From: Bacillus multifaciens | Lineage (GTDB): Bacteria > Bacillota > Bacilli > Bacillales > Bacillaceae_G | Reading direction: 5' to 3' | DNA length: 64,000 nt | Assembly (NCBI RefSeq): GCF_030756675.1 | Contig: NZ_JAVBXD010000006.1 | Location: 106,576 to 170,575, forward strand | In this document: piece after piece, positions 18,989-53,493 of the stretch | How the letters are laid out: each line of letters begins with the position of its first letter | Position numbering within the stretch: position 1 is the stretch's first letter | The notes under the pieces: generated by a model | The model's database searches: none | Seen by the model: only the letters and a program-made list of their open reading frames with translations | What the model was told of the DNA's origin: nothing | Made by a program: the position numbers and the translations under genes

Positions 18989-19462
18989 ATGAGTAGTAAA
19001 ACAAATGCTTGTCGTTTATTAGATAAGCACAAAATCGTATATACAGTTCACAAATATGAATGGGATGAGGAAAACTTAGATGCGAAACATGTCGCCGAGC
19101 AAGTTCATTTACAATTAGAACAAGTCTTTAAAACGCTCGTCCTTCGCGGTGATAAATCTGGCGTAATTATGGCCTGTATCCCTTCACACAAAGAGCTCAA
19201 TTTAAAAGCGCTGGCATCTGCAAGTAAAAATAAAAAAGTTGAAATGGTTCCAATGAAAGAAATACTTGGATTAACAGGATACATACGCGGCGGTGTTTCA
19301 CCGCTTGGTGGAAAGAAAAATTATCCACTCTTTATTGATGAATCTGCTGCAAATCTAGACCCAATTAGTATTAGTGCTGGAAAAAGAGGATTGCAAATTT
19401 TCATGAACGGCGCTGACTTAATCAAAATTAGTGACGCAACACCTACCTCCATTACTTCATAA
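18989..19462 (+). CDS. ybaK: YbaK/EbsC aminoacyl-tRNA deacylase
   Basis: About 157 aa with the YbaK/ProX fold: FKTLVLRGDKSGVIMACIP carries the conserved Lys, and GYIRGGVSPLGGKK is the glycine-rich loop typical of YbaK. The enzyme removes cysteine mischarged on tRNA(Pro), which is made by prolyl-tRNA synthetase. Start at ATG 18989 with AAAGGAAG upstream. Promoter-like TTGCAA and TATACT sequences precede it. The gene ends in a clear terminator (19461-19496). Confidence 0.9.
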   Translation: MSSKTNACRLLDKHKIVYTVHKYEWDEENLDAKHVAEQVHLQLEQVFKTLVLRGDKSGVIMACIPSHKELNLKALASASKNKKVEMVPMKEILGLTGYIRGGVSPLGGKKNYPLFIDESAANLDPISISAGKRGLQIFMNGADLIKISDATPTSITS

Positions 19463-19500
19463 CAAAACCTGTCTCAATAGATGAGGCAGGTTTTGTTTAT
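19461..19500 (+). terminator. Rho-independent terminator of the YbaK gene
   Basis: The stem AACAAAACCTGtCTC/GAGgCAGGTTTTGTT starts at the stop codon and is followed by TATTTAATTT. Confidence 0.85.
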
Positions 19501-19625: not shown

Positions 19626-19780
19626 ATTTTTTGGCATACAGACTGCTGTCATGCAAACAAGGGCAGGGGCCTGCACTTATTGGCTGCTTTTTGCACGTGG
19701 CAGGAAAAGGCCCTGACCGCCCCTATGCATCGCCAGTACCTCTCGCCCATTTAAAAAAATGCTTTTCTGTCGGTTTTTCA
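19626..19780 (+). repeat. Dispersed bcr1-like repeat, copy B
   Basis: Same orientation as copy A (2990-3158), and the most diverged of the four. Shared blocks are GCATACAGACTGCTGTCATGCA at the left, GTGGCAGGAAAAGGCCCTGACCGC, CTCTCGCCC, and TGTCGGTTTTT at the right end. It occupies the gap between ybaK and the hisS promoter. Confidence 0.7.
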
Positions 19781-19822: not shown

Positions 19823-19851
19823 TTGATAATTCAAATTTTAAGTAGTATACT
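19823..19851 (+). promoter_or_regulatory. Sigma-A promoter of the hisS leader transcript
   Basis: TTGATA, 17 bp, TATACT. The predicted start is near 19858, about 20 bases before the leader-peptide start codon. Confidence 0.8.
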
Positions 19852-19879
19852 ACTTAAAACGCTATAGGAGAGATTGCTT

Positions 19880-19924
19880 ATGTTTAGAATAGATTGTTCT
19901 TTCCAACTTTATCATCATACATAA
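19880..19924 (+). CDS. His-rich leader peptide of hisS (14 aa)
   Basis: The frame encodes MFRIDCSFQLYHHT. AGGAG lies nine bases upstream of the ATG, which is an ideal ribosome-binding site. Two consecutive His codons (CAT CAT, 19913-19918) stand just before the stop, immediately before a set of mutually exclusive hairpins and the hisS gene. This is the layout of a ribosome-mediated transcription attenuator like the his and trp leaders of enteric bacteria. Function as a sensor is inferred. Confidence 0.7.
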   Translation: MFRIDCSFQLYHHT

Positions 19925-19935
19925 AGCCTTGTATC

Positions 19936-20033
19936 CGAAGAATTTTTTCTTCGTGGGTACAGGGTTATTCCTGATTACCCACGAAGCGATTATAAAGCTA
20001 TGTGGGTATTTTCATACCCACATAGCTTTTTTT
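19936..20033 (+). promoter_or_regulatory. Four-segment transcription attenuator before hisS
   Basis: Segments: 0 = CGAAGAA (19936-19942); 1 = CTTCGTGGGTA, preceded by TT (19947-19959); 2 = TACCCACGAAG (19976-19986); 3 = AAAGCTATGTGGGTAT (19994-20009); 4 = its complement (20014-20029), followed by T residues. Pairing 3:4 is a strong terminator of 16 bp. Pairing 1:2 has 11 bp plus AGG/CCT. The alternatives 0:1 (7 bp) and 2:3 (TACCCAC/GTGGGTA, 7 bp) exclude them. A ribosome stalled at the His codons leaves segment 0 free, so 0:1 and 2:3 form and the terminator is lost. A ribosome that reaches the stop covers segment 0, so 1:2 and 3:4 form. No T-box core is present. Confidence 0.75.
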
Positions 20034-20055
20034 ATTTCAAAAAGGAGTGATAAGC

Positions 20056-21354
20056 ATGAACTTACAAAATGTAAAAGGTACAAAAGATTATCTACCAGAA
20101 GAGCAAATGCTGCGTAATACCATTAAACGGACTTGTGAAGAAATATTTGAGACTTATGGCTGCAAACCACTAGAAACACCTATTTTGAACATGTATGATT
20201 TGATGGCTTATAAATACGGTGGAGGATCTGAAATTTTAAAGGAGATGTACACGCTTCAAGATCAAGGGAATCGCGAGCTTGCACTGCGTTATGATTTAAC
20301 CATTCCCTTTGCAAAGGTTGTCGCTATGAATCCAGAAATTCGCCTTCCTTTTAAACGTTATGAAATTGGGAAAGTATTTCGAAACGGCCCTATTAAACAA
20401 GGAAGATTTCGAGAGTTTGTACAGTGTGATGTAGATATTGTTGGCGTTGAATCCGTCTTAGCTGAAGCAGAATTAATGGTAATGGCTCTTGACATTTTTA
20501 ACAAATTGAACTTAGACGTAACCATTCAATATAATAATCGAAAACTATTAACAGGGTTGTTACAAGCAATTCAAATCCCTGAATCACGAGTACAAGATGT
20601 TATTTTATCTGTAGATAAACTTGAGAAAATTGGTATCGATGGTGTAAGAAAAGATTTAATAAACCGAGAGATACAAAGCGAAACGATTGATGTGTTATGT
20701 AAGACATTAGAAACATGTATGTCTATGCCACTTTCTGAATTTAATAAAGTGTTTCCTAACCTTCTTGTTAAAGAGGGAGTTGCTGAACTTCAAGAACTTC
20801 AGCAATACTTAGGTGCACTAGGAATTCAATCTAATACAATGTTCTCCCCCTTTCTTGCACGAGGGCTCACAATGTATACCGGAACAATTTATGAAGTTTT
20901 TTTAACTGATGGCAGTATTACGTCTAGCATTGGTAGCGGTGGACGCTATGATTATATTATTGGTGCATTTCGAAATGATAAAAAATCTTATCCGACAGTT
21001 GGAATTTCGTTTGGTTTAGACGTCATTTATACTGCGCTTATCCAAAAAGAACAGGCCTCCTCTTCTATCGATCTCTTTATCATTCCACTTGGAACACAGG
21101 CAAGATGTCTAAAAATTGCTCATACATTGCGAACAAATGAAAATTTAAAGATAGAACTTGAACTGGCAGATCGTAAACTAAAACGAGCCCTTAACTATGC
21201 AAACAAAGAAAACATTCCGTATGTACTTATTGTCGGTGAAGAAGAAATAAATAATGAATTAGCTGTTTTACGAAACATGAAGGAAGGCACGGAACAAACG
21301 ATTCCCCTTGCTTCTATTGAAAATGGAACTTTCAAACAATACTTATGTCGTTAA
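20056..21354 (+). CDS. hisS: Histidyl-tRNA synthetase
   Basis: Class II synthetase of about 432 aa that charges tRNA(His). The N-terminus has VKGTKDYLPEEQ, and motif 2 is in the region YEIGKVFRNGPIKQGRFREF. The histidine-specific motifs are ARGLTMYTGTIYEVF and SIGSGGRYDYIIG. The C-terminal anticodon-binding domain (about 330-432) includes ELADRKLKRALNYANK and IPYVLIVGEEE. The presence of the C-terminal domain and intact motifs argues for a real synthetase rather than HisZ. RGLTMYTG differs from the usual RGLDYYTG, so it is a divergent form, perhaps the second copy in the genome. Start ATG 20056 has AAAGGAG eight bases upstream. Controlled by the leader at 19880-20033. Confidence 0.88.
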   Translation: MNLQNVKGTKDYLPEEQMLRNTIKRTCEEIFETYGCKPLETPILNMYDLMAYKYGGGSEILKEMYTLQDQGNRELALRYDLTIPFAKVVAMNPEIRLPFKRYEIGKVFRNGPIKQGRFREFVQCDVDIVGVESVLAEAELMVMALDIFNKLNLDVTIQYNNRKLLTGLLQAIQIPESRVQDVILSVDKLEKIGIDGVRKDLINREIQSETIDVLCKTLETCMSMPLSEFNKVFPNLLVKEGVAELQELQQYLGALGIQSNTMFSPFLARGLTMYTGTIYEVFLTDGSITSSIGSGGRYDYIIGAFRNDKKSYPTVGISFGLDVIYTALIQKEQASSSIDLFIIPLGTQARCLKIAHTLRTNENLKIELELADRKLKRALNYANKENIPYVLIVGEEEINNELAVLRNMKEGTEQTIPLASIENGTFKQYLCR

Positions 21355-31329: not shown

Positions 31330-32316
31330 TTAACACCCAATCCGTTTTTTTATTTCTGCTAAATTCACCCTCGCAATTGCCCTTGCCCTCTCTACTCCTT
31401 TTTCTATTGCTTCTTGAAGTAAATACGGCTCATTCATATACATCTCATATTTCTTTCTTGGCTCTTCTAACTCACGATTGATGACGCGGAATAACTCTTT
31501 TTTCACATCCCCCCAGCCGATACCTGTTGCGTATTGCTCTTTCATGATTGCGACTTCCTCAGCTATCGCAAATTCTTTATACAACATAAATAATGTTTCA
31601 AGTTCTTTCGGTTCACTTGGTAAGGAAGAATCTGTTTTGATTTTAAAAATCAGTTTTTTCAGCTTTTCTGGTTCTTCAAATAACGGAATGACATTTCCAT
31701 AGCTTTTACTCATTTTTCGTCCATCGAGGCCGGGCACAATCGCTCCTTCTTCTTGTATGATATACTCAGGTAATACAAAGATTCCTCCAAATGTGTTATT
31801 AAAATACGAAGCAATATCCCTAGCAATTTCTACATGCTGAATTTGATCTTTTCCAACTGGAACATAGTTTGATTGGAATAACAAAATATCAGCAGCCATT
31901 AAAATAGGATACGTATATAATCCCATGTTTACACCAGTATCTACATCTACTCCTGCTTCTAAATTTTGTTCAACCTTTGCTTTATATGCATGAGCACGGT
32001 TCATTAAGCCTTTCGGAGTAAGGCAAGCTAAAATCCAGTATAACTCTAAGATCTCTGGTACATCTGATTGGCGATAAAAGATTACATGCTCATCTAACCC
32101 TAATGATAACCACGTTGCCGCTACTTCTTTCGTATATTCACGAAATTTCTTTGGATCTTGTACGGCATTCAAGGCATGATAATCGGCAATAAAATATAAC
32201 GCCTCTCCTTCTCTTTGTTTTGAAAGCTGCAAGGCTGGTTTAATTGCTCCAATATAGTTTCCGAGATGCGGATGTCCAGTTGGTTTAATTCCTGTTAACA
32301 TAACTTTTTTATTCAC
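31330..32316 (-). CDS. trpS: Tryptophanyl-tRNA synthetase
   Basis: Class I synthetase of 328 aa, which charges tRNA(Trp). The HIGH-like motif is PTGHPHLGNY (12-21), and the KMSKS loop is GRKMSKSYGN (about 196). Length matches the family. It is preceded by a T-box leader, so its transcription should respond to uncharged tRNA(Trp). A partial duplicate of its 3' half lies 1.5 kb downstream. Confidence 0.95.
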   Translation of the reverse strand: MNKKVMLTGIKPTGHPHLGNYIGAIKPALQLSKQREGEALYFIADYHALNAVQDPKKFREYTKEVAATWLSLGLDEHVIFYRQSDVPEILELYWILACLTPKGLMNRAHAYKAKVEQNLEAGVDVDTGVNMGLYTYPILMAADILLFQSNYVPVGKDQIQHVEIARDIASYFNNTFGGIFVLPEYIIQEEGAIVPGLDGRKMSKSYGNVIPLFEEPEKLKKLIFKIKTDSSLPSEPKELETLFMLYKEFAIAEEVAIMKEQYATGIGWGDVKKELFRVINRELEEPRKKYEMYMNEPYLLQEAIEKGVERARAIARVNLAEIKKRIGC

Positions 32317-32335: not shown

Positions 32336-32585
32336 AATAAAAAAGCCCCTCAATCCTAAAAAGGACGAGGGACTCCCGTGGTACCACCTTTATTAGCTAC
32401 AATTTCATAGCTCTCTTTATGATTCGAGTAACGTCGAAACAACCGTCAAAGCCTACTCAATTCAGCTTGCAGCTCCAGAGCCCATTCCACATTTTTCCCT
32501 TACTGATTCCCACCAACCATCAGTTCTCTGTGAAGTTCCAAATATGTACTCTTCTCTTTCATCGCTTTTTCTTTAATTTTTCCTT
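32336..32585 (-). promoter_or_regulatory. T-box leader of trpS
   Basis: The minus strand holds the T-box sequence GGTGGTACCACGGGA (plus 32374-32388), which pairs with the tRNA acceptor end. The terminator CCCTCgTCCTtttt..AGGAttGAGGG is followed by T residues (32336-32368). An upstream stem I region includes GATGGTTGGTGG, where TGG is the likely Trp specifier. A -10 element TATAAT (32586-32591) marks the promoter. Confidence 0.92.
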
Positions 32586-50996: not shown

Positions 50997-51030
50997 ATGA
51001 ATCAACATACTAATGCTATAAAAAAGCAAC

Positions 51031-51274
51031 GAAAAGGACACGAGATATTCTTACGGTTTTACAGAGAAGGAAGAGTTGCTGAGATCTTCCTAAACGCAGA
51101 AGAATATACTTACCACCTTGGAGCTGTATTGGGGAATTATAGTATCCAATACCGTAGACGCTACGTTACAGCGCACGGAGCCATCGACACTTTTTTTAGT
51201 ACGATGGGAATCTGGGTGGAACCACGGGTATTAACGCACTCGTCCCTGTTTTAGGGATGAGTGCGTTTTTTATT
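51031..51274 (+). promoter_or_regulatory. T-box leader 1 of thrS
   Basis: Contains the T-box core GGGTGGAACCACGG (about 51215-51228) and a terminator AACGCACTCgTCCCT..AGGGAtGAGTGCGTT followed by T residues (51233-51272). ACC triplets at 51112-51117 are candidate Thr specifiers. It senses uncharged tRNA(Thr). A second, nearly identical unit follows. A 79-codon frame across it is not a gene. Confidence 0.93.
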
Positions 51275-51303
51275 TTTCTCAATTCCATATAATAATTAGC
51301 TAT

Positions 51304-51547
51304 GAAAAGGACACGAGGTATTCTTACGGTTTTACAGAGAAGGAAGAGTTGCTGAGATCTTCCTAAACGCAGAAGAATATACTTACCACCTTGGAGCTGT
51401 ATTGGGGAAACATAGTATCCAATACCGTAGACGCTACGTTACAGCGCATGGAGCCATCGACGCTTTTTTAAAGTGCGATGGGAATCTGGGTGGAACCACG
51501 GGTATATACGCACTCGTCCCTATTTTAGGGATGAGTGCGTTTTTTTA
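51304..51547 (+). promoter_or_regulatory. T-box leader 2 of thrS
   Basis: A near-exact tandem duplicate of the first unit, shifted by 273 bp, with its own T-box core (about 51489-51501) and terminator (51508-51546). Differences cluster in the loop before the T-box core (TTTTTTTAGTACG in unit 1, TTTTTTAAAGTGCG in unit 2). Two units in series should tighten control and need two tRNA-binding events for readthrough. Confidence 0.93.
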
Positions 51548-51570
51548 TATTATGAAATGGAGTGATAATG

Positions 51571-53493
51571 ATGAGTAACAAAATGATTCAAATTCGTTTT
51601 CCAAATGGTCGTGAACAGGAGTATATGAAAGGAACTACATTAGAATCAATCGCAGAATCGATTAGTCCTGGGTTAAAAAAGAAAGCTATTGCCGGAAAAG
51701 TGAATCAGCAACTATTTGATTTACGTAGAGGCATACAGGAAGATGCAGAAATTGAGATTCTAACTTTAGAATCAAAAGAAGGTTTAGATGTACTACGTCA
51801 TACAGCAGCCCACATATTAGCACAAGCCGTTAAAAGAATACACGGTCACATCAACTTAGGCGTTGGTCCTGTTATTGAAAATGGCTTTTACTATGATATG
51901 GATCTTCCAAATAGTATTGCAGTTGAAGAATTAGTTCAAATTGAACAAGAGATGCAAAACATTATTGATGAAAATTTAGAAATTCAACGAATCGAAGTAA
52001 GCCGCGATGAAGCAAAACAAATATTTGAGGAGCTCGGTGATCATTTAAAATTAGAGCTATTACAGGACATTCCTGCTGATCAAAACATAACTCTTTACAA
52101 ACAAGGTGAATTTTTAGACTTATGTCGCGGACCACATCTACCGTCTACTGGCTTTATGAAAGCTTTTAAATTAACAAATGTTTCAGGAGCATATTGGCGC
52201 GGTGACAGTAATAACCAAGTTCTTCAAAGAATATATGGGGTTGCCTTCCCTTCTAAAAAAGAATTAGATGAGTATGTAATCTTTTTAGAAGAAGCCGCAA
52301 AACGCAATCATCGTAAATTAGGCAATGAATTAGAATTATTTATGTTCTCTGAAGAAGCACCAGGAATGCCATTTTATTTACCAAAAGGACAAATTATCCG
52401 AAATGAAATGGAAGCTTTTTTAAGAGGGATTCAACAAAAGCGTAATTATCAAGAAGTCCGTACTCCTTTAATGATGAATCAAAGGCTATGGGAAAACTCC
52501 GGTCATTGGGACCATTATAAAGAGAATATGTATTTCACAGAAGTTGATCATGGAAAATTTGCCTTAAAGCCAATGAACTGCCCTGGCCACATGTTGATGT
52601 TTAGAAATAAGCTGCATTCTTATCGTGATTTACCAGTTCGAATGGCTGAATTTGGGCAAGTCCATCGCCATGAATTTAGCGGCGCTCTTAATGGACTCCT
52701 CAGAGTTCGTACATTCTGTCAAGATGATGCCCATATTTTTGTAACACCTGAACAAATTGAAAATGAAATAAAAGAAGTCATTGATTTAATCGATTATGTA
52801 TATCGTATATTCGGTTTTGAATATGAAGTTGAGCTCTCTACAAGACCAGAGAATTCAATGGGAGACGACGAGTTATGGAATAAGGCGGAAGGTGCCCTGC
52901 AAAATGTATTAGAAGAACTCAATTTCCGCTATAAAGTGAATGAAGGTGACGGAGCATTTTACGGTCCGAAAATTGACTTCCATATTAAAGACGCTTTAAA
53001 TAGAAGTCATCAATGCGCAACTGTACAGCTTGACTTCCAAATGCCGGAAAAATTCAACTTAAGCTATATTAATGAAAAAAATGAAAAGCAACGTCCTGTT
53101 GTCATTCACCGTGCTGTGTTTGGTTCAATCGATCGATTCTTCGGTATCTTAATCGAACATTTTGCCGGAGCATTCCCAACATGGTTAGCTCCCGTACAAG
53201 CGAAAATCATTCCTGTATCTGCCGAAGTACATGAACAATACGCAAGAGAAATAGAAGAAAAGTTAAAAGATGCTGGTGTACGAGTAGAACTTGATCTTCG
53301 TAATGAAAAACTCGGTTATAAAATGCGAGAAGCACAAGTTCAAAAAATCCCATATGTCCTTGTCGTTGGTGATCAAGAAGCCGAGCGTAACGAAGTAAAT
53401 ATTCGAAAATATGGAGAACAACAATCTAAAGCTATACGATTTGACAAATTCTTTGCAAATATTCAGCAGGAAATTCAAAATAGAAGTTTATAA
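51571..53493 (+). CDS. thrS: Threonyl-tRNA synthetase
   Basis: About 640 aa, full length for the family. The N-terminal TGS domain (about 1-62) and the second additional domain (about 65-240) carry the editing site HTAAHILAQAVKR. The class II core has motif 1, motif 2 (MNCPGHMLMF with zinc Cys; RVRTFCQDDAHIF) and motif 3 (HRAVFGSIDRFFGILIEHFAG). A C-terminal anticodon domain (about 540-640) follows. Start among GTG 51562, ATG 51568 and ATG 51571; the last has the best spacing from TGGAG. Regulated by two T-boxes, as in B. subtilis thrZ, which has three. A second thrS elsewhere is likely but not in view. Confidence 0.95.
   Translation: MSNKMIQIRFPNGREQEYMKGTTLESIAESISPGLKKKAIAGKVNQQLFDLRRGIQEDAEIEILTLESKEGLDVLRHTAAHILAQAVKRIHGHINLGVGPVIENGFYYDMDLPNSIAVEELVQIEQEMQNIIDENLEIQRIEVSRDEAKQIFEELGDHLKLELLQDIPADQNITLYKQGEFLDLCRGPHLPSTGFMKAFKLTNVSGAYWRGDSNNQVLQRIYGVAFPSKKELDEYVIFLEEAAKRNHRKLGNELELFMFSEEAPGMPFYLPKGQIIRNEMEAFLRGIQQKRNYQEVRTPLMMNQRLWENSGHWDHYKENMYFTEVDHGKFALKPMNCPGHMLMFRNKLHSYRDLPVRMAEFGQVHRHEFSGALNGLLRVRTFCQDDAHIFVTPEQIENEIKEVIDLIDYVYRIFGFEYEVELSTRPENSMGDDELWNKAEGALQNVLEELNFRYKVNEGDGAFYGPKIDFHIKDALNRSHQCATVQLDFQMPEKFNLSYINEKNEKQRPVVIHRAVFGSIDRFFGILIEHFAGAFPTWLAPVQAKIIPVSAEVHEQYAREIEEKLKDAGVRVELDLRNEKLGYKMREAQVQKIPYVLVVGDQEAERNEVNIRKYGEQQSKAIRFDKFFANIQQEIQNRSL

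What the first reader, a model, noticed from the sequence alone, without database searches (positions are those of the whole stretch)
19823..20056. Leader-peptide transcription attenuator in front of hisS, not a T-box
Seen directly: a sigma-A promoter, a 14-codon ORF with an ideal ribosome-binding site and tandem His codons, then five segments that pair as 0:1 / 1:2 / 2:3 / 3:4, with 3:4 a strong terminator 20 bp before hisS. The geometry is that of enteric his/trp attenuators. The stalled ribosome frees segment 0, which sequesters 1 and lets 2:3 form. Known: Firmicute aminoacyl-tRNA synthetase genes are usually under T-box control, and ribosome-mediated attenuation of a synthetase gene would be unusual in Bacillus. 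Inferred: the gene senses His-tRNA(His) charging through translation of the peptide.
Basis: partly seen in the sequence, partly recalled or inferred. Interest (0 to 1): 0.88.

Follow-up and report, generated by a model that had tools for sequence, protein, structure and literature searches.

The report
Histidine leader-peptide switch before hisS
A short histidine-rich leader peptide and a set of competing RNA hairpins sit in front of a second-type histidyl-tRNA synthetase gene and very probably switch it on when histidine-charged tRNA runs low; the element is real and well conserved, but its existence was already predicted in print in 2010.

Summary
In detail: promoter-like site, Shine-Dalgarno, 14-codon ORF MFRIDCSFQLYHHT (19880-19924), five RNA segments A-E (19925-20029) that pair A:B, B:C, C:D, D:E, D:E being a terminator, then a histidyl-tRNA synthetase gene (20056-21354). 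No T-box is found at the site; trpS and a thrS in the same window have T-boxes. The reading as a ribosome-mediated attenuator is well supported by comparison. A short ORF with tandem His codons lies before 98 of 106 distinct relatives of this gene (shuffles: 260 of 5300). The four neighbouring pairings co-vary. The main caveat is the window itself: at equilibrium a ribosome on the stop codon moves the fold only if it reaches about 16 nt downstream. Naville and Gautheret (2010, PMC2965389) already predicted a His leader peptide before hisS* of bacilli, and Ashniev et al. (2022, PMC9413887) before the B. cereus-group his operon. What this work adds: breadth across Bacillota, covariation of the alternative stems, a five-segment layout in which no translation should mean read-through, the same leader before transporter and hisZ-hisG genes, and an archaeal-side placement of this synthetase.

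The parts
19823..19851 (+). promoter-like site TTGATA-17-TATACT
   Evidence: such a site at this distance in 51 of 96 relatives' leaders vs 3 of 96 control stretches
19866..19872 (+). Shine-Dalgarno AGGAGAG of the leader ORF
   Evidence: sequence; SD-like 4-mer before 85 of 98 leader ORFs
19880..19924 (+). leader peptide ORF MFRIDCSFQLYHHT, stop TAA
   Evidence: orthologous His ORF in 98 of 106 distinct regions, the window included
19913..19918 (+). tandem His codons CAT CAT (sensor codons)
20014..20033 (+). segment E and U-run of the intrinsic terminator
   Evidence: 16-pair stem 19994-20029 followed by T-run
20056..21354 (+). hisS*, histidine--tRNA ligase of the NF009085 (PRK12420) type, 432 aa
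   Evidence: 726.6 bits, cut-off 540 (scanned from codon 4); 17 of the 19 solved-structure sequences listed are His-tRNA ligases, those of the best scores among them

Best explanation
This is a ribosome-mediated transcription attenuator that senses charging of tRNA-His. A transcript starts near 19858 (inferred). A ribosome translates the 14-codon leader. When His-tRNA is scarce it waits at the His codons; its front edge then ends at about 19924-19927, so segment A is free, A pairs with B, C is left to pair with D, the D:E terminator cannot form, and hisS* is transcribed. When His-tRNA is plentiful the ribosome reaches the stop codon at 19922 and covers the first part of A; B then pairs with C as soon as C is made, D is left free to pair with E, and transcription stops before hisS*. 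Shown here: the anatomy, the conservation of His codons and their spacing to the stop codon, and the covariation of the four stems. Inferred: ribosome stalling, termination and the response to histidine; none was measured.
For: Tandem His codons in a short ORF before 98 of 106 distinct hisS* regions, HHH in 93 of 106; dinucleotide shuffles give 260 of 5300 and 10 of 5300; reverse strand 3 of 106. Of the 8 misses, L117 and L156 have such an ORF further upstream, L203-L206 and L214 have interrupted runs (VHQH, HYYH, YHFH), and L208 has a single His codon (read by eye). The His run ends 0-4 codons, in 86 of 98 one or two, before the stop. Swap test with 16 hand-segmented leaders: native A:B, B:C, C:D, D:E beat all 5000 permutations each; of six non-neighbouring pairings five do not stand out, C:E does (11 of 5000). 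Pair counts on 17 leaders: covariation score and percentage paired above all 500 shuffles for A:B+C:D and for B:C+D:E, and far above slid registers. Of the 21 Brevibacillus-order leaders, pairing of D falls in 18 when the front edge moves from the first His to the stop codon; in 14 the minimum-energy fold goes from A:B+C:D to B:C. Of ten other five-segment leaders it falls in eight, not in the window or L012. In the window C:D falls from 8.9 pairs to 0.2 when the edge passes from 19936 to 19938. Two other synthetase genes of the window have T-boxes, this one none.
Against: With a front edge 10-14 nt past the first base of the stop codon, the window's equilibrium fold still keeps C:D (8.9-9.7 pairs); the switch needs about 16 nt or the kinetic argument that B:C (about 14 pairs at that point) forms before D is made (D pairing 0.68 vs 0.67). 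Even with A free, RNA ending just past C prefers B:C (11.2 vs 4.5 pairs), so order of folding matters. Over all 108 leaders folded (duplicates included), the first-His state raised D pairing in only 47. In the 69 that are neither of the window's class nor of the Paenibacillus class it did so in 15: these Bacillaceae-type leaders seem to have no segment C (66 aligned) and how they work is unclear. L196, L197 and L199 show no fall at the stop codon; L191, L193 and L194 keep C:D in the stop-state minimum-energy fold. Within the five Paenibacillus-type leaders alone the swap test does not support C:D (945 of 5000) or D:E (5000 of 5000: these segments hardly vary). In some searches the count of further pair types is not above shuffles (443 and 78 of 500 reach it). 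Only two His codons in the window. No expression data.
Confidence: 0.9

Rival explanations
1. A T-box riboswitch that binds uncharged tRNA-His directly, degenerate enough to be missed.
For: T-boxes are the usual control of Firmicute synthetase genes; trpS and thrS in this window have them.
Against: No RF00230 match at the site at the gathering score or with E up to 5; a conserved His ORF is not part of a T-box. In relatives the T-box goes with the other gene: in 5 of 10 genomes (G278, G440, G025, G132, G001) the capped listing shows a T-box 68-239 nt before the canonical hisS1; for the other 5 (G002, G003, G300, G407, G602) the part listed shows none there.
Confidence: 0.02
2. The same RNA switch, but the leader ribosome reports general translation slow-down or an antibiotic rather than histidine.
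For: Five-segment layout gives read-through without translation; other Firmicute leader ORFs act this way (recalled: erm-type leaders). Some genes behind such leaders have no known tie to histidine: a Na+/H+ antiporter-family transporter, an alpha/beta hydrolase, an unknown protein.
Against: Tandem His codons are what is conserved (98 of 106); hisS*, a hisZ-like gene with hisG, and an amino acid permease stand behind such leaders.
Confidence: 0.05
3. The terminator is constitutive (or yields a small RNA) and the ORF encodes a small protein with its own function.
For: Terminated leaders can act as small RNAs; Gln two codons before the His run is conserved in 85 of 98.
Against: The upstream gene has its own terminator-like hairpin at 19463-19495; the peptide outside Q-L/F/Q-HHH is variable; alternative stems co-vary, which a constitutive terminator would not need.
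Confidence: 0.03

Closest known systems
Histidine leader peptide of hisS* and hisZ in bacilli (Naville and Gautheret 2010, PMC2965389; section 10 read, other passages)
   Same: Same kind of gene (the Bacillus hisS paralog) and element: short ORF with a stretch of His codons plus premature terminator, predicted to be a leader-peptide attenuator.
   Different: The section I read states the prediction and a sequence clustering; segment architecture, covariation and default state are added here. It calls the paralog a recent duplication specific to bacilli; the tree here does not support that. Its figure and supplement were not seen, nor whether this genome is in its list.
RNA attenuators of his operons in the B. 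cereus group, Peptostreptococcaceae and Erysipelotrichales (Ashniev et al. 2022, PMC9413887; abstract, section 8 and passages)
   Same: Leader peptide with 3-5 His codons, attenuator, terminator and antiterminator hairpins.
   Different: Controls the biosynthesis operon, not the synthetase; hisS is not mentioned in the main text (0 occurrences).
Enteric his and trp attenuators; Rfam RF00514 His_leader
   Same: Works alike (recalled): tandem cognate codons, stalled ribosome, mutually exclusive terminator and antiterminator.
   Different: No RF00514 match; five segments, so that no translation favours read-through.
Auxiliary TrpRS gene under ribosome-mediated attenuation (Vecchione and Sello 2010; title seen in a reference list, paper not read; host Streptomyces recalled)
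   Same: A second, auxiliary synthetase gene under a leader-peptide attenuator.
   Different: Trp, Actinobacteria, and an antibiotic-resistant enzyme; nothing here shows inhibitor resistance of hisS*.
Leu-rich attenuator peptide of ilv-leu in Staphylococcus aureus (PMC5794164; passages)
   Same: Amino-acid-specific leader peptide in a Firmicute, with reporter evidence.
   Different: Leucine, biosynthesis operon.

Membership tests
Ribosome-mediated (leader-peptide) transcription attenuator | Short translated ORF with tandem codons for the cognate amino acid | tested here: met
   98 of 106 distinct regions with HH, shuffles 260 of 5300; SD-like site before 85 of 98. Translation itself not measured.
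Ribosome-mediated (leader-peptide) transcription attenuator | Intrinsic terminator before the gene and a mutually exclusive antiterminator | tested here: met
   D:E and C:D share segment D; both co-vary across the 16- and 17-leader sets, not within the five Paenibacillus-type leaders alone
Ribosome-mediated (leader-peptide) transcription attenuator | Ribosome position at the codons versus the stop codon selects the fold | tested here: inconclusive
   D pairing falls in 18 of 21 Brevibacillus-order leaders; in the window only with a front edge about 16 nt past the stop codon's first base, or kinetically
Ribosome-mediated (leader-peptide) transcription attenuator | Expression rises on limitation of the amino acid and depends on the codons | not testable with these tools
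   needs a reporter
T-box riboswitch (RF00230) | Match to the T-box covariance model | tested here: not met
   three T-boxes elsewhere in the window show that the search works
Rfam His_leader (RF00514) | Match to the proteobacterial His leader model | tested here: not met
   no match even at E up to 5
Histidine--tRNA ligase NF009085 (PRK12420) | Score above the curated cut-off | tested here: met
   726.6 bits, cut-off 540

The most novel reading that the evidence does not exclude
A portable histidine switch: a five-segment, default-on leader-peptide attenuator, carried across Bacillota, drives an anciently distinct, archaeal-side second HisRS as an inducible back-up (possibly inhibitor-resistant) enzyme beside a T-box-controlled housekeeping HisRS, and the same switch also controls histidine biosynthesis, transporters and at least one gene of unknown function.
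Probability: 0.4. Interest if true: 0.62.

Novelty: already known. Interest (0 to 1): 0.42.

Why it matters
It shows that ribosome-sensed and tRNA-sensed control of histidyl-tRNA charging can coexist: in two relatives (G278, G001) the canonical HisRS gene has a T-box and the second one a His leader peptide. That makes it possible to ask in a laboratory Bacillus why a cell keeps two synthetases on two different sensors. The broad set of leaders also gives a Gram-positive attenuator family with enough covariation to build an RNA family model; no family of the Rfam copy searched reaches its gathering score on the window's leader.

Tried and rejected
T-box and any Rfam family: rejected (the best sub-threshold hit, RF04312 trpB motif, 36 bits against a gathering score of 59, covers 19950-20037, segments B to E; I did not pursue it).

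Equilibrium folding of the leaders with one fixed ribosome edge was too blunt: 47 of 108 went the expected way. It separated five-segment leaders from Bacillaceae-type leaders, of which 66 distinct ones were aligned and show no conserved segment C. In several Paenibacillus leaders the script took segment C for D (e.g. L020, L207, L210, L212, L213), so their values mean nothing.

A first tree contained five wrong-strand ORFs (L001, L015, L032, L033, L069), picked by my script; it was discarded and rebuilt. L017 was left out of both because the frame picked was only 42 aa. The AU test (p 0.005 against hisS* plus hisS1 as one clade) was set after seeing the first tree, and most rows are the nearest hits to hisS*, so it argues only against a recent duplication.

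Plasmid and phage collections: no match to the leader. The minus-strand match of model R1 at 19991-20089 (32.8 bits) overlaps the near-palindromic terminator and I take it as an artefact. The GC-rich stretch upstream of the promoter does not fold better than shuffles. Literature searches for experiments on this leader or for hisS2; none found in this open-access library, which lacks most subscription papers.

Selection in counts: of the 80 loci I looked for a leader before 16 (15 had one; L025 had none) and not before the other 64, mostly archaea and other phyla. L025 is not among the 106. Of 113 regions 7 were dropped as same-sequence duplicates. The 17 leaders of A1 and the 16 were chosen by me for diversity; segments were drawn from each leader's own fold, which favours the native pairing. 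One search is a hand alignment of helix cores from 10-12 leaders per helix. Of 50 loci found with model R1 I examined 19: 14 have a His-rich leader ORF; L237 is a T-box terminator before hisS1, L262-L264 are weak matches without one, and L261 has the RNA without a His ORF.

Full report
1. What is there. The sequence between the gene ending at 19462 and hisS at 20056 carries a promoter-like site (19823-19851), a Shine-Dalgarno sequence (19866-19872), an ORF of 14 codons, MFRIDCSFQLYHHT (19880-19924), and five segments A-E (19925-20029) that can pair A:B, B:C, C:D, D:E. D:E is a 16-pair terminator-like hairpin followed by a T-run. Native duplex energies in the window are -21.9, -23.7, -12.4 and -24.3 kcal/mol. 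The leader folds far better than shuffles (z -7.8). No Rfam family reaches its gathering score here, while T-boxes are found elsewhere in the window: before trpS at 31330-32316 (-) and, as a tandem, before a thrS at 51562-53493 (gene names are mine from the translations).

2. The gene. The product (scanned from codon 4) scores 726.6 bits against NF009085, histidine--tRNA ligase (cut-off 540), and 364.6 against TIGR00442 hisS (cut-off 286.75), and stays below the cut-off of the hisZ models listed. I call it hisS* after PMC2965389. In a tree of 50 proteins hisS* of Bacillota (11 rows) joins HisRS of Woesearchaeota, Micrarchaeota and one unnamed archaeon (union of 20 rows, 100/99), apart from Bacillota hisS1 and hisZ; an AU test gives p 0.005 against hisS* and hisS1 as one clade (caveats under Tried and rejected). 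It is therefore unlikely to be the recent Bacillus-specific duplicate described in 2010. Genomes carrying it above the cut-off: 59 of 397 of one order, 21 of 39 of the Brevibacillus order, 2 of 19 of the family of G278, 32 of 398 of the class; the sets overlap.

3. Conservation of the peptide. In 106 distinct regions (113 before removing duplicates) a 6-32 codon ORF with HH in its last ten codons occurs in 98, with HHH in 93; dinucleotide shuffles give 260 of 5300 and 10 of 5300, the reverse strand 3 of 106. Among the 98, 96 start with ATG, the run ends 0-4 codons before the stop (one or two in 86), and Gln stands two codons before the run in 85. Of the eight misses L156 and L117 have such ORFs further upstream, L203-L206 and L214 have interrupted runs, and L208 has one His codon (by eye). 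L025, a Clostridia MAG outside the 106, has none.

4. Covariation. I sort the leaders by eye into three classes. The window's class (five segments) occurs in Brevibacillus, one Paenibacillus (L017), Geosporobacter, a Sporomusaceae MAG and relatives in the family of G278; a Paenibacillus class has the same layout with other sequences; the third, Bacillaceae-type class lacks segment C. In 16 leaders of the first two classes the four neighbouring pairings are each better than every one of 5000 permutations of partners; five of six non-neighbouring ones do not stand out, and C:E does (11 of 5000). The 11 non-Paenibacillus-type leaders alone also give 0 of 5000 for all four (there B:E is the non-neighbouring pairing that stands out, 87 of 5000); the 5 Paenibacillus-type ones give 91, 35, 945 and 5000 of 5000, so C:D and D:E are not supported within that small set. 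On 17 aligned leaders the structures A:B+C:D and B:C+D:E have covariation scores 0.254 and 0.227 against shuffle means of 0.177 and 0.125, none of 500 shuffles reaching them; pairs with two-sided change are reached by 16 and 1 of 500 shuffles, and further pair types by 443 and 78, so that last measure is silent. In the hand alignment, positions with two-sided changes are 8 of 8 (A:B outer), 2 of 7 (B:C core), 5 of 7 (C:D) and 7 of 8 (D:E base).

5. Mechanism. Moving the ribosome's front edge from the first His codon to the stop codon lowers the pairing of D in 18 of 21 Brevibacillus-order leaders (not L196, L197, L199) and in 8 of 10 other five-segment leaders (not the window or L012). In 14 of those 21 the minimum-energy fold goes from A:B+C:D to B:C. 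For the window the change is sharp but late: C:D is 8.9 pairs with the front edge at 19936 and 0.2 at 19938, while the stop codon begins at 19922. A 3' reach of about 13 nt, which I recall from toeprints, would not suffice at equilibrium; but with RNA ending just past C, B:C already has about 14 pairs in that state, so folding order can do it. Without a ribosome the window folds A:B+C:D (17.5 and 9.8 pairs), and D is paired upstream with probability 0.5 or more in 19 of the 21 Brevibacillus-order leaders, i.e. read-through. That differs from the trp model as I recall it.

6. Regulon. A covariance model of the class (R1) finds matches in 18 of 19 genomes of one family and 23 of 39 of the Brevibacillus order at E up to 0.01, a good part of them hisS* leaders already known. 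Of 50 loci I examined 19; 14 have a His-rich leader ORF. Such leaders stand before a hisZ-like gene followed by hisG (L221; hisG 189.4 bits, cut-off 75.75; the hisZ-like gene is below its cut-off), an amino acid permease (L088/L217; Pfam AA_permease_2), a Na+/H+ antiporter-family transporter (L089/L233; I recall it as YuiF-like), and an unidentified gene of about 150 aa (L216; no Pfam or NCBIfam hit at the limits used). In L235 the next listed gene of 100 aa or more is an alpha/beta hydrolase.

7. Two sensors. In 5 of 10 genomes (G278, G440, G025, G132, G001) a T-box lies 68-239 nt before the other, canonical hisS1; for the other 5 the capped T-box listing shows none there. G278 and G001 also carry hisS* with a His leader ORF (L087, L004); G440, G025 and G132 have no hisS* at E up to 1e-100. 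So both sensors are seen together in two genomes.

8. What is known. Naville and Gautheret 2010 (PMC2965389; section 10 read) predict a His leader peptide upstream of hisS* and hisZ in bacilli. Ashniev et al. 2022 (PMC9413887; abstract, section 8 and passages) predict His-leader attenuators of his operons in six B. cereus-group species and others. Kaiser et al. 2018 (PMC5794164; passages) give reporter evidence for a Leu-rich attenuator peptide in S. aureus. The finding is therefore a sound rediscovery. I found no experimental test of the hisS* leader.

9. Verdict. The open points are the late switch in the window's own leader, the leaders without segment C, and the conserved Gln before the His run.

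Noticed in passing
66 distinct leaders (L003-L006, L008-L011, L014, most of L118-L176, L201, L202): Bacillaceae-type hisS* leaders have the His ORF and a terminator but no conserved segment C. Their A:B hairpin contains the ORF's own stop codon with compensating changes (UAGCC/GGCUA, UAACC/GGUUA, UAGUC/GACUA). The most notable other alternative is AAUCGCA (inside B) with UGCGGUU (E), 89% paired. How stalling acts there is unexplained; in 69 leaders outside the two five-segment classes D pairing was higher with the ribosome at the first His in only 15.
   Followed up: partly
leader ORFs of 98 loci; window 19904-19906 (CAA, here three codons before the His pair): Gln (CAA in 80, CAG in 5) stands two codons before the His run in 85 of 98 leaders, usually followed by Leu, Phe or Gln; perhaps a stalling aid or an unstructured-RNA need.
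   Followed up: partly
window 19910-19912; L204-L206, L208: Tyr codons (TAT, one base from CAT) stand where others have His: YHH in the window, HYYH in L204-L206, FYYH in L208 (by eye). Tyr and His tRNAs share the queuosine modification (recalled).
   Followed up: no
window 51020-51524 and 51562-53493: Tandem T-boxes before a thrS gene; trpS at 31330-32316 (-) has a single T-box at 32358-32571 (-).
   Followed up: no
window about 19640-19735: A GC-rich stretch in an AT-rich intergenic region upstream of the leader promoter; no Rfam hit at the gathering score, no excess folding (z -0.65, minus strand).
   Followed up: partly
L177, L178, L215, L216: A strong His leader attenuator of the window's class stands before an unidentified gene of about 150 aa (L216 scanned: no Pfam or NCBIfam hit).
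   Followed up: partly
L261 (G411): A Brevibacillus-order genome has the B-E part of the leader (57.7 bits) but no His ORF seen in front and no hisS* at E up to 1e-100; perhaps a relic after gene loss.
   Followed up: no
G393 (L174, L175): One genome holds two hisS* loci, each with its own His leader, and in both the synthetase match is split into two reading frames; described only.
   Followed up: no
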